Source: Xylona heveae TC161
Taxonomy: Eukaryota > Ascomycota > Xylonomycetes > Xylonales > Xylonaceae
Assembly: GCF_001619985.1 (NCBI RefSeq)
Contig: NW_017264197.1
Location: forward strand, 1,178,001-1,242,000
Direction of reading: 5' to 3'
Length of the DNA stretch: 64,000 bases
Positions 18,225-23,693 of this stretch are shown here, piece after piece. Numbering within the stretch: position 1 is the stretch's first letter; every line of letters begins with the position of its first letter. The notes beneath the pieces were generated by a model that was not told the origin of the DNA, searched no databases, and was given only the letters and a program-made list of their open reading frames with translations. A program made the position numbers and the translations under genes.

Positions 18225-18393
18225 TCATAAATCATTTCTGTCGTAGCCGTAGCCGTCGCCGTAGTCACCCATCAGCCCCATACTTTCGCCATTCCCTCTC
18301 ACCACACCAGCGTTAAACTCATTCGCCATCTCGTCATCCTCAATGAAGCCTCTCCCTGGGGCAGGAAAAGAAGGAGGGGCTGCTGCTGATTCT
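18225..18393 (-). other. Candidate alternative terminal coding exon of the Vip1-like gene
   Basis: On the minus strand a clear acceptor (CTGTTTAG, with CTGAT upstream) is followed from 18393 by an open frame of 55 codons to TGA at 18225. It reads ESAAAPPSFPAPGRG, then GFIEDDEMANEFNAGV, then a Gly/Tyr/Asp tail ending YGYDRNDL. The acidic and Gly-Tyr composition looks like real protein, and no other minus-strand gene lies between it and the Vip1-like gene. The frame needs a donor of phase 2. The GTAGCT at 18969, overlapping the stop of the cysteine-rich tail, has that phase and would give a 381-aa protein. A GTCTTC in the exon at 18719-18816 also has it but is a poor donor. Confidence 0.5.
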
Positions 18394-18718: not shown

Positions 18719-18816
18719 TTAAGAAGACTTCTCGCTAGCAACGTTTTCTCCGAGAGGCGCCACGTTCGATTGAGCAGCAACGTCCGCACTCGGTCCAGTG
18801 GCAGTCTGTTGCTCAG
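18719..18816 (-). other. Candidate alternative 3' exon of the Vip1-like gene (skips the metallothionein-like tail)
   Basis: A good acceptor (GGTTTAG at 18817, with GCTAAT about 40 nt upstream) is followed by a frame reading SEQQTATGPSADVAAQ through PLGENVASEKSS to a TAA at 18719. A perfect GTAAGT donor at 19267, inside the coding region just before the cysteine-rich modules, has the matching phase 1. Joining them gives a 258-aa protein without the modules. The intron would be 451 nt, long for this genome. Confidence 0.5.
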
Positions 18817-18965
18817 CTAAACCAAAAACACCGCGAAAAAGACACGCGGCCCCAACATTAGCTTTTCTTTCTCTCTCAACACCACATATAAAAAGAAAAG
18901 AAAAGGAGAAAAAGAAAAAAGGAGGATATTGTCCTGAAACACACAACTGGTTTGAATGCGAAAAG

Positions 18966-20110
18966 CTACTTTCCGCAGCCAGAACAGCCGCAGTGCCCCG
19001 GCTCGCATTTGCATTCGCCTTCATTTGCGCCGCAGTTGCACTCCGTCTTTTCCGTCTGCGCAATCTGATGCACATCCTTGGGGTTCTTGGCACAGCCGCC
19101 ACAGGCACAGTGTCCCTCCCCGCACGAGCAATTCTTTGAGTTGCCGCCGCAGCCGCAGGTAGTAAACTCTGTGCCTGGGATATGGTGCACAGCAGACTTG
19201 CCGCAGTCCGCGCAAGCGCATTTTCCGGGCGGGCAGGAACAGGCTTCAGTATGAGAATCGCACTTACACGTCGTGGACTTGCCACTCTTGAGATCGGCGA
19301 GACGGCGAGCTTCGGCATGGATGTCGCGCACTTGCTTGTCACCCTGGGTATAGAATGCACGGACACGCTGGCCGGTGGGGGTGCCAAGCGCCTTCTCAAA
19401 GTACTGGCCCAGGCTCTTCCAGCCGGCGTTGGCCTTTTCGGAGATGCCGTAGCTGGTGTCCAGCCCCTTGGCCTTGTCGGTGGCGTGGTACTTGCTGTCA
19501 AAGTTGGTGAGGGCTTGAGTGAAGCGGCTCGAGATGCCGTGCTTCTGGTCCAGAGCAATGGCGCGCTCAATCGCAGCGTCGCTCAGTGCGTATCCATGCG
19601 CAAGGTACTCGGCTACGATGCGAGAGCGGGGCTTGTCTTCTTGTGGGATATCATTGTCGTCGCCGCCCAAGCCACCCTCGTCTTTCTCTCCGGCGAGCTC
19701 TTCAAGACTAGCGGCACTGGAGACTGATACGGCAGATGGGCCAAGCTGAGTGTTGTCAAGTAGAAGAGCGGTCTTGGCAGCACTGTTTCAGGAAAGAGTC
19801 ATAAGTCATGGTCCATCTGACGGTGAGCATCTTCCGGAACCCGCAAATGAAGATGGCCACATTCAAACAAGGTTGCCAACTTACGTTTCCTTTTCAAAGG
19901 TTACAGTGGCGGACTGAGGGCTTCCATGACCATCAGAGGTGGGCGTCACGGAGAGAGAGCTGATCTTTCCGCTGTAGACAAGCAAGAGCGATTAGTGAGA
20001 CTGGAAGGGATAACGTCCTCAAAGACGACGTACCAAAAGCTAAAGAAATCCCTGACTTCCTTTTCGGTAGTCTGCGCAGCAATGTTGTTCACATGAACGG
20101 TGTTGGCCAT
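18966..20110 (-). CDS. vip1: Vip1-like RRM protein with a triple metallothionein-like C-terminal tail
   Basis: RNA-recognition protein of the fungal Vip1 family (often annotated as actin cytoskeleton protein VIP1; exact role unclear). Exons 20110-20034, 19971-19885 and 19782-18966 give 326 aa. Residues about 3-80 are an RRM, with RNP2-like VHVNNI and RNP1-like ATVTFEKE. Then comes the family core: PRSRIVAEYLAHGYALSDAA, helical segments and VRDIHAEARRLADLK. After residue about 222 the protein becomes cysteine-rich: three modules, each C-x-C-x6-C-x-C-x4-C-x-C-x2-C followed by K or a K-containing linker, 21 cysteines in all. This is close to the seven-Cys pattern of Neurospora copper metallothionein. 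I do not recall this tail in other Vip1 proteins. A perfect GTAAGT donor (19267) lies at the start of the first module, so this tail may be an alternatively retained segment; see the candidate exons at 18719 and 18225. Confidence 0.85.
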
Positions 20111-21071: not shown

Positions 21072-23693
21072 CTAAGCTTGGGAGCTCGTAGAAGTTGGGC
21101 CGTTATGGTCGGACACCTGTGCAGTGATGTTTGGATTCAGTGCTTTCACCGTCGCCACGCTCTCCCCTAGATCACCTTCATCTGACGCAGGCGTAGCGCT
21201 AGTGTCATTCTCTAACTCGGTTTGGGCGGGCGCCTGAGAGTCTGGATCCTCAGCGTGGTTCACTGCTGCTGCATTATCCTCCTCCTTCTCCTGTTCTCCA
21301 ATCATCGCAGCCAAACTTCTAAAGTTCAGCAAAGGCTCGAGGCTCGAAGCGCCCCCAGCAGGAGTCGAAGTGCCCAAACTGTCGTATTCTCCGCCCGCAT
21401 TCAAAGCTGGGGTGCTAGAGGTGGGGTCAAAAGATGAATTGGATGCAGCAAATTCGTTGCGTACAGAACCAGGACCAGAATCTAAAAAGGAAGACGCCGA
21501 GGAAGATGTATTAGAGACGTGTCGCAAGTGAGAGGGCCGGGAAGGAGTCAAGGTGTCTGCTGGATGGCTGCGAGGCAGCTCACCGCCGCGGATTGACATG
21601 TCGCTCATGGTATTTCCAGATCCAGATCGTAGGCGCCCGCTGGAGGAGGAATGCTCACTAAGAAGAGAAGGTCTCAGTGGTGCAGCGTCAGATGCGTTGC
21701 TCTGTGGCCGATCCACACTCTTGCCCTTTGACTGTATGGCAGAATCTCTCACTGTGGATGAAGTGGACACGCCCGGATTAGTCTGCGGAGAGTTCGCGAT
21801 TGATGATGCTGAAGCGTTCTCGCTTGCGGCGTTATGATAGACACCGCCTTTCTTTGCCGCCTTCTCGGCTTTCCTCGTCTCCTTCTCCTTCTTTTTGGCC
21901 GTTTTCTTGGCTTCCTTTTCCTCCTTGCGCTTTCTCTCCTCTTCAGCTGCCAAACTCAGCCGAATAGCTTCCATCATCATCATCTCTTCCAAGTCCTCAA
22001 GCCTACTCCTCCGTGAACTAACTCGAGCAGGAGTTAGACTGACACTGGGCCCCTCAAAAGCATTACCATTATTGCCCGGCCCAGACTCTCGATCAATGGC
22101 CTGGATGAGTCCGCCAAGACCACCGGCACCAAACGTATCCCGTGGTCTGGCTTCACTGACATTCTCATTACTTGCACCAGGTCGTCGAATCAATCCACTA
22201 CGTCTGCCAAATCCGCCGAATCCCCGTGATTCAGCGCCGCTATTGGTGTTTAGTAAATATGCAGCAGTATGCAAGGCCGTAGCGGCAGCAGACCTGCGTG
22301 CGGCATGTGCCCGAGCATTCGCAAGTTTTTGAGCCCAATCGGGTCGAATTTTATCAGTGGTGATAACAGCAGGGGATGTCGCAGACAAAGAAGTCGTCCT
22401 CCGCCGACCTGTCCCTTGAGGAGAAAGACGGTCTCCAGCAGCGCCCACGGAGGAAAGCGAAGATGAGGAGGACATGGCGGATGGACCATGGGCAACTCCG
22501 CTTGCATGTGCATATACGAGGCCCTTTCGGAATGGAGGCGGCTCGTACGTGATCCCGAATTCAGGCTGAACGCAGAATGGGCACGCTGCCGGCTCCGAGA
22601 CCAGGGTGAGCTCTTCGACCTGCTCTCTCCCTTCACCGCCGTTGTTATCATTGTGTTCCGGTGGATGCGGATCGGGCCTCTTGATTTGAACGAAGCACTC
22701 CGAACAAATGGCTTGATCGCAGCAACGAGTCTTATTGAGATAAGGCGGGTAGTATAAAAAGCAAATGGGACATTCAGTCGCATCTTTGTACAAATATGCC
22801 TCGACGGGTTGGCCATTAACATAAGGATCCTTGGGCAAATGCACCTCCCTTGGAGTCATATCCATGGGTGAATTGCTCTTCGATGTGGTCAGCGAGGCCA
22901 AGGTTTTAGAACGTCCGCGGAAGAGAGGTGATGTTGCAGATGGCGCAAGCAAGGGAGACGTGGTATTTGGAAGCGATGAAGCTGGCTGCGAACCGTCAGA
23001 AGTCGCGGAATGAGTACGCGCAACGATCGGAACGCTCAAAGTATTCTTGGGTTGCTCAGAGGCATGCGGATCGGAAACGTTGGTGGTGGACCTGCTTGCG
23101 AACTCGGCAGGTATATCATCAGCAGCGGGAAGCGGAAGACCCCTCGCTGCGGCCACAAGTTGATGCTCAGTCCATGAGTCGGAGTGGTCGTTGAGGCCCT
23201 TCCAAAAAGGAGCAAGACGTCTTTCAATCTATATTCCGCAATTAGCTCAGCCCAGCGACTCACGTCACAATTGTTTTGGTAGACTTGCCATCAACTGTCT
23301 AACTATGGCCTTGTTGAAATCCTCCGGCCCTGTGTAGACACCCTGCGTGACGAGAAAGCCGCCATCTACGCTTTCCTCTCGTATGCTTCGCTCTCTCTCC
23401 TTTTCCCTTGCAATCCTCTCTTTCTCTAGCCTTCGAGCTTCTCTCTCCTGCTTTGTCTCCCTTCGAGTCTCAGCGGGCGCTTCATCTCGATTGCTTGACC
23501 CGCCTATGCCAAGAAAGCTAGTGAGATCTGGCCTGCTCCCTCTCGCAGGACGAGAGCTGTAAATAGGAGACGCTTGACGGCCTAACGGGGCGAGTCCAGC
23601 TCCGACGGCAGCCGGGCCGGAGGAGCTATGATGCCGTGACCCTGAAGGACGGGATTGTGCTTGACGTTGCTCTTTCGTTGCAGAGTTACCCAT
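21072..23693 (-). CDS. sip5: Sip5-like RING-type zinc-finger protein
   Basis: Homologue of yeast Sip5, a protein that binds the Snf1 kinase and Glc7/Reg1 phosphatase in glucose signalling. Exons 23693-23289 and 23228-21072 give 853 aa. The start [13 protein letters not shown] has an N-myristoylation-like Gly2. A charged helix rich in ERK repeats follows, then [21 protein letters not shown] joined to [20 protein letters not shown]. The zinc module begins [19 protein letters not shown] and [13 protein letters not shown] and is completed by ACPFC. The second half is low-complexity Ser-rich, with a [10 protein letters not shown] charged coil. The single intron begins with GC (GCAAGT) and ends TATAG: a GC-AG intron. 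The only nearby GT donor (GTGAGT) lies beyond an in-frame TGA, so the GC site is needed. Confidence 0.9.

What the first reader, a model, noticed from the sequence alone, without database searches (positions are those of the whole stretch)
18966..19270. Three Neurospora-type metallothionein modules fused in frame to an RRM protein
Seen: after the Vip1-like core, 21 cysteines fall in three modules with identical spacing, C-x-C-x6-C-x-C-x4-C-x-C-x2-C, separated by His-containing linkers (AVHHIPG, DVHQIAQ). Known: Neurospora copper metallothionein has C-x-C-x5-C-x-C-x3-C-x-C-x2-C. Inference: an RNA-binding protein carrying a 21-thiol metal cluster could sense or buffer metal (or zinc/copper-dependent redox state) and link it to RNA fate. 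I do not know of a described RRM-metallothionein protein of this kind.
Basis: partly seen in the sequence, partly recalled or inferred. Interest (0 to 1): 0.8.

Follow-up and report, generated by a model that had tools for sequence, protein, structure and literature searches.

The report
Metallothionein tail on fungal RRM protein
A fungal gene can encode an RRM (RNA-recognition-fold) protein with a 21-cysteine, metallothionein-like tail, but the public gene model splices that tail out, so one gene probably makes a form with the tail and a form without it.

Summary
The minus-strand gene (exons 20110-20034, 19971-19885, 19782-18966) reads in frame through an RRM, a helical Vip1-type core and three perfect CxCx6CxCx4CxCx2C modules, 21 Cys. 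The architecture is shared: 126 of 172 retrieved relatives carry 1-6 modules of this spacing, while a 27-protein clade including Aspergillus and Trichophyton has none. Pfam matched nothing in the tail. Five literature searches listed no paper on such a fusion.

A 451-nt intron, 19267-18817, is removed; its GTAAGT donor lies inside the codons of the first C-K-C, and the acceptor opens a terminal exon with a conserved ATGP...APLGE end. Both mutually exclusive C-termini are conserved, so I infer two products: a 21-thiol, probably Cu(I)-binding form (intron retained) and one without the tail (spliced).

RNA binding is doubtful, because three usual aromatic RNA-contact positions are Ser, Thr and His. 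Neither metal binding nor expression of either isoform was tested.

The parts
20034..20110 (-). Exon 1: start codon to the split codon of residue 26 (first part of RRM)
   Evidence: spliced product equals P0001 over the shared part
19885..19971 (-). Exon 2 (RRM continued)
   Evidence: Pfam RRM_1 residues 6-69, E 3.7e-09
19269..19782 (-). Exon 3, core part: end of RRM, acidic linker, helical Vip1-type region to ...LADLKSGKSTT
   Evidence: AlphaFold2 model: RRM residues 1-80 mean pLDDT 90-98 per block of ten, helices 102-220 at 51-84
18966..19268 (-). Metallothionein-like tail, 100 codons plus stop, 21 Cys in three 7-Cys modules
19203..19268 (-). Module 1 CKCDSHTEACSCPPGKCACADC
19092..19157 (-). 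Module 2 CGCGGNSKNCSCGEGHCACGGC
18975..19040 (-). Module 3 CNCGANEGECKCEPGHCGCSGC
18817..19267 (-). 451-nt intron of the public gene model; it contains the module array except the first T of the first Cys codon, and the stop of the long form
   Evidence: Splicing it gives P0001 letter for letter, 258 aa
19262..19267 (-). 5' splice site GTAAGT inside TGT AAG TGC (C-K-C of module 1)
18857..18861 (-). Branch-point-like CTAAT, 42 nt before the acceptor
   Evidence: consensus CTRAY recalled
18719..18816 (-). Alternative terminal exon, encodes S-EQQTATGPSADVAAQSNVAPLGENVASEKSS
   Evidence: 18 of 27 residues identical to the end of the Sarea resinae protein P0035

Best explanation
One Vip1-family gene with two C-termini. 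Retention of the 451-nt last intron gives a 326-aa protein: RRM, helical core, and three 7-Cys modules that probably wrap Cu(I) in thiolate clusters, about five or six Cu per module by analogy with the Neurospora, Agaricus and Cryptococcus modules. Splicing of that intron, whose donor is written into the C-K-C codons of module 1, gives a 258-aa protein without the 21 tail Cys and with a conserved ATGP...APLGE end. The gene thereby sets how much of its Vip1 carries a metal/thiol load; the likeliest role is a tethered copper (or thiol-redox) buffer or sensor at the site where Vip1 works. Shown: the frame, the modules, their conservation, the splice signals, and the two encoded C-termini. Inferred: that both transcripts are made, that the tail binds Cu(I), and what the load does to Vip1.
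For: Three perfect modules in frame; only Met is M1, no in-frame ATG in the open frame before the tail. Modules of the same spacing in 126 of 172 relatives; spacing 6/4/2 in 215 of 222 seven-Cys matches found with flexible spacing. Module-to-module differences are heaviest at third codon positions in two of three pairs (9/8/17, 7/8/15; the third pair is 7/9/9), as expected under protein-level selection. The spliced form reproduces the database protein exactly. Its terminal exon is conserved: 18 of 27 residues with P0035; 53 of 173 rows, P0001 among them, match an ATG...PL end pattern of my own making. P0035 (Sarea resinae) and P0092 (Pleopsidium flavum) show the same joint, KTT then S then the ATGP end. 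K in the first CxC, needed for GTAAGT, stands in 31 of 54 first modules of multi-module proteins and 10 of 89 later ones. 43 environmental proteins on contigs under 1.8 kb run unbroken across both upstream intron sites and carry modules, which looks like cDNA. The tail finds one locus in the 24.3-Mb genome.
Against: No RNA data were examined. The database protein of this gene lacks the tail. The joints in P0001, P0035 and P0092 come from named genome records, presumably automatic models, and may be artefacts of a strong GTAAGT; other relatives' models cut a module at varied points (P0002, P0019, P0095, P0122), which looks like annotation noise. The K count is not corrected for kinship, and single-module proteins have K in only 16 of 73. 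Ten further module-bearing environmental proteins cross both intron sites on contigs of 2.3 kb to 2 Mb or of unstated length, so an unbroken frame need not mean cDNA. No Pfam, NCBIfam or PDB sequence matched the tail. No DNA of a relative was obtained.
Confidence: 0.55

Rival explanations
1. Annotation error only: the tail is always translated (RRM-metallothionein fusion is the sole or main product) and the 451-nt intron is a false call; the terminal exon is a relic or part of the 3' UTR.
For: 16 of 173 rows, the window's own included, end at or within three residues after the last module. MT genes are often misannotated automatically (PMC4755600, passage seen). The called intron (451 nt) is far longer than introns 1 and 2 (62 and 102 nt).
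Against: The terminal exon keeps an intact, conserved ATGP...APLGE sequence in the frame reached by that splice, with GTAAGT, CTAAT and TTTAG signals; a relic should have decayed.
Confidence: 0.25
2. Constitutive intron: X. heveae always removes the array and the modules are a relic of an ancestral tail.
For: The public gene model (P0001) and the nearest relative in the tree, P0035, lack modules. A clade without modules exists (27 rows, SH-aLRT 99).
Against: All 21 Cys and all spacings are intact. The stretch is stop-free in frame; 368 of 20,000 base shuffles are. Third-position excess between modules in two of three pairs.
Confidence: 0.1
3. The tail is translated but its job is not copper binding: zinc/cadmium detoxification, redox switch by disulfides, or scaffold for protein contacts.
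For: Spacing differs from the characterised Cu-thioneins; no family model matches. Metal preference cannot be read from spacing.
Against: The second half of module 1 (CSCPPGKCACADC) fits the Tremella Cu-thionein block CSCPPGXCXCAXC (PMC4755600, abstract and passages seen). The genome has two copper-fist matches, which says only that copper regulators are likely present.
Confidence: 0.1

Closest known systems
Neurospora crassa copper metallothionein (fungal MT family I)
   Same: 7-Cys unit with three CxC pairs and a final Cys
   Different: x6/x4/x2 spacing instead of x5/x3/x2 (pattern given in PMC4755600); repeated three times; fused to an RRM protein; not a free 26-aa peptide
Cryptococcus CnMT1/CnMT2 and Tremella TmMT modular metallothioneins
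   Same: Tandem 7-Cys boxes separated by spacers; the TmMT block CXCX3CSCPPGXCXCAXCP resembles module 1 from the second CxC on (PMC4755600, passages)
   Different: First spacer x6 versus x3 in TmMT; those are stand-alone MTs; here the array is the tail of another protein and lies in an annotated intron
Vip1 RRM proteins ('Protein vip1' and 'actin cytoskeleton protein' in database names)
   Same: RRM plus conserved core; relatives bear these names
   Different: The 27-row clade has no modules; no direct comparison with S. pombe Vip1 was made
Intron retention / exitrons (exonic introns)
   Same: A protein-coding stretch flanked by GT...AG that can be kept or removed
   Different: Here the kept form ends at its own stop, so the two products differ in C-terminus; one search on fungal intron retention listed 11 papers, titles and abstract starts seen, none about this gene

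Membership tests
Fungal metallothionein, family I (N. crassa type) | Cys pattern CxC-x5-CxC-x3-CxC-x2-C | tested here: not met
   x6/x4/x2 in all three modules and in 215 of 222 family matches
Fungal metallothionein, family I (N. crassa type) | Free, small Cys-rich protein without other domains | tested here: not met
   In frame behind RRM and core, no ATG of its own
Fungal metallothionein, family I (N. crassa type) | Binds Cu(I) in thiolate cluster | not testable with these tools
   Needs purified protein
Modular 7-Cys-box metallothioneins (CnMT/TmMT) | Tandem 7-Cys boxes with spacers | tested here: met
   Three boxes, linkers of 15 and 17 residues
Modular 7-Cys-box metallothioneins (CnMT/TmMT) | Detectable sequence homology to MT families or structures | tested here: not met
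   0 Pfam families at E up to 10 and 0 NCBIfam families at E up to 1 for the tail; 0 PDB sequences at E up to 10
Vip1 RRM family | N-terminal RRM plus conserved core ending EARRLADLK | tested here: met
   Pfam RRM_1; alignment of 11 relatives; relatives named Protein vip1
Canonical RNA-binding RRM | Aromatic residues at RNP2 position 2 and RNP1 positions 3 and 5 (recalled) | tested here: not met
   RNP1 position 3 Ser 144/161, position 5 Thr 138/161, in the 161 of 172 rows where the motif was located; RNP2 position 2 His 158/172, Tyr 7
Alternatively retained intron | Splice signals and coding sense in both states | tested here: met
   GTAAGT, CTAAT, TTTAG and conserved products of both states
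Alternatively retained intron | Both transcripts observed in the same organism | not testable with these tools
   No RNA reads available here

The most novel reading that the evidence does not exclude
A conserved fungal switch in which the splice donor is itself encoded by a metal-binding motif (TGT AAG TGC = C-K-C), so that retaining or removing one intron adds or removes a whole 21-thiol metallothionein array on a Vip1 RRM protein, possibly in response to copper or redox state.
Probability: 0.35. Interest if true: 0.82.

Novelty: new variant of a known kind. Interest (0 to 1): 0.66.

Why it matters
Fungal metallothioneins are described as free peptides (PMC4755600 and PMC13107397, passages). 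Here 7-Cys modules of a distinct, conserved spacing are welded to an RRM protein found at one place in this genome and shared by 126 of 172 retrieved relatives; Pfam does not see them, and in this genome they fall inside an annotated intron. If both forms are made, cells change the thiol content of one protein by splicing, and some public gene models of this family miss a functional domain. It also gives a handle on Vip1, whose bound RNA is stated as unknown (PMC7397868, one passage).

Tried and rejected
Separate tail transcript with its own ATG: rejected, none in the 174 open codons up to the first tail Cys. Chance Cys run: rejected. Known Cys domain of another kind: no Pfam match to the tail at E up to 10. 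His-linker metal ligands as a family feature: rejected, 19 of 89 linkers. DNA of relatives to compare intron borders: one scan each of genome contigs and viral contigs gave none. Another module locus in the genome: none found with the tail at E up to 10, in a six-frame search that scores only the best candidates. Metal-response motifs in 1 kb upstream: one ACE1-like on one strand, one MRE-like on each strand, no control run, not used. Structure: only the RRM was confident (pTM 0.37); the 50 Foldseek hits shown align over 73-110 columns, mostly to entries named as RRM proteins, and teach nothing about the helical core. A donor after module 3 that would join all modules to the ATGP end: no consensus-like one before the stop; a weak one cannot be excluded. 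Cys codon use (15 TGC, 6 TGT) is no evidence, since Cys has only these two codons. A recalled lead that plant BPA1-type proteins resemble the core: one literature search gave one unrelated paper, not followed. PMC12113139 and PMC6437275 were opened for passages and did not bear on the fusion.

Full report
Observation. On the minus strand, exons 20110-20034, 19971-19885 and 19782-18966 (introns 62 and 102 nt, GT-AG) encode 326 residues with 22 Cys, 21 of them in the last 100 residues in three copies of C-x-C-x6-C-x-C-x4-C-x-C-x2-C. No other perfect module occurs in the window in six frames. Of 200,000 shuffles of the 105-residue tail none had two modules and 84 had one. Residue 1 is the only Met, and the 174 codons from the preceding stop (19790) to the first tail Cys hold no ATG (one GTG, four CTG), so the tail is part of the RRM protein or is not translated from an ATG.

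Identity of the genome. The window lies in G000, 24.28 Mb, 17 contigs. The best protein hit is Xylona heveae TC161 L228DRAFT_247275 (P0001), which the window's DNA reproduces letter for letter when one further intron is removed. The full protein matches one place in the genome at E up to 0.001, exon by exon, and the tail finds no second locus at E up to 10 (both searches score only the best candidates).

The hidden intron. P0001 has 258 residues and ends ...LKSGKSTT-SEQQTATGPSADVAAQSNVAPLGENVASEKSS. It arises from a 451-nt intron, 19267-18817, with donor GTAAGT, a CTAAT 42 nt before the acceptor, and acceptor TTTAG. The donor sits in the codons TGT AAG TGC, the C-K-C of module 1; the three modules (bar the first T) and the stop of the long form lie inside the intron. 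The terminal exon 18816-18719 is conserved: its product matches 18 of 27 residues of the end of P0035 from Sarea resinae, and an ATG...PL end pattern of my own making is present in 53 of 173 rows, P0001 among them. The two C-termini exclude one another in this gene unless a weak donor after module 3 is used; no consensus-like one was found there.

Family. Searches listed 172 different proteins: the best 120 of 2,096 and of 2,164 hits, and 3 of 3. With the window's own protein, 173 rows were counted: 0 modules 46, one 73, two 32, three 15, four 3, five 2, six 2. So 126 of 172 database proteins hold at least one perfect module; the listing is biased because the queries held the tail. Of the 46 rows at zero, five have seven or more Cys in a variant arrangement (P0067, P0070, P0124, P0126, P0158) and two have fewer (P0122, P0128). 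Spacing was 6/4/2 in 215 of 222 flexible matches. A tree of 169 core sequences (P0001, P0073, P0171, P0172 left out; quick IQ-TREE, 58 of 166 inner branches under 80) puts the window's protein beside P0035 (SH-aLRT 91) and collects 27 proteins without modules in one group (SH-aLRT 99) whose named members include Aspergillus, Paecilomyces, Trichophyton and Blastomyces (names); module-bearing proteins are spread over the rest. Module number is fluid: at least 38 changes among four classes on this tree. The simplest reading is an old tail, lost in one clade and expanded or shrunk elsewhere; the root is not fixed, so gain versus loss is inferred. Names of fungal classes in my notes are recalled, not from a call.

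Are two isoforms made? For: both ends are conserved; P0035 and P0092 show the same joint, KTT followed by S, where relatives have KTT-C (82 modules are preceded by KTT); K in the first CxC, needed for GTAAGT, occurs in 31 of 54 first modules of multi-module proteins and 10 of 89 later ones (Fisher p 6.6e-9, not corrected for kinship), but in only 16 of 73 single-module proteins. P0017 and P0021 (one module) share 98-99% of the core with P0114 (none), and P0053 shares 98% with P0095 (21 and 19 tail Cys); these may be sister species, and 39 rows without the exact core-end motif were left out of that comparison. Of 81 environmental proteins, 72 read unbroken across both upstream intron sites and 53 of those have modules; 43 of the 53 sit on contigs under 1.8 kb and look like cDNA, but ten sit on contigs of 2.3 kb to 2 Mb or of unstated length, so an unbroken frame can also come from genomic DNA or an intron-aware caller; the tables do not say which. 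Against: the named joints are database gene models, other models cut a module at scattered places, and no RNA was examined. Third-position excess between modules (9/8/17, 7/8/15; but 7/9/9 for the third pair) argues that the array is protein-coding under selection; the stop-free frame is uncommon but not decisive (368 of 20,000 shuffles).

Function. The modules resemble the 7-Cys boxes of Cryptococcus and Tremella MTs, which behave as Cu5-(7-Cys) units, and N. crassa MT, which takes up six Cu(I) (PMC4755600 and PMC13107397, passages seen). By analogy the tail could carry about 15-18 Cu(I); not tested. No Pfam, NCBIfam or PDB sequence matched the tail. The RRM is confidently modelled and matches solved RRMs, but RNP1 positions 3 and 5 are Ser (144/161) and Thr (138/161) and RNP2 position 2 is His (158/172); the importance of aromatics there is recalled. 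Canonical stacking on RNA is therefore unlikely. [quoted passage not shown] that this yeast protein is the same family rests on the name). I favour a tethered metal/thiol load on Vip1, adjusted by splicing, over a direct metal-to-RNA link.

Literature. Searches of the open library for metallothionein with RRM, with Vip1, with RNA recognition motif, for modular fungal MTs, and for RNA-binding metallothionein-like proteins (listings and abstract starts seen) showed no paper whose title or abstract start describes this fusion. Most subscription journals are not held, so absence from print is not shown.

Noticed in passing
window 18225-18390, minus strand: Open frame ending ...GRGFIEDDEMANEFNAGVVRGNGESMGLMGDYGDGYGYDRNDL just downstream of the terminal exon, preceded by a TTTAG; looks like a lone coding exon, no Pfam match.
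   Followed up: partly
window 21072-23228, minus strand: Upstream neighbour, open frame of 718 aa with a [10 protein letters not shown]...[12 protein letters not shown] cysteine cluster and no Pfam match at E up to 0.1; resembles SIP5-type proteins by recall.
   Followed up: partly
P0002, P0019, P0095, P0119, P0122 (database proteins): Public models cut the last or only module at different points before a PL-containing end; either more alternative splicing or annotation noise in this family.
   Followed up: partly
P0067, P0070, P0126, P0158: Variant module with a shortened second spacer (CPC then two residues then CxC; spacing 6/2/2 found four times) in these one-module proteins.
   Followed up: no
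P0025: 446-aa model that continues past the ATGP end into other sequence, probably a fused gene model.
   Followed up: no
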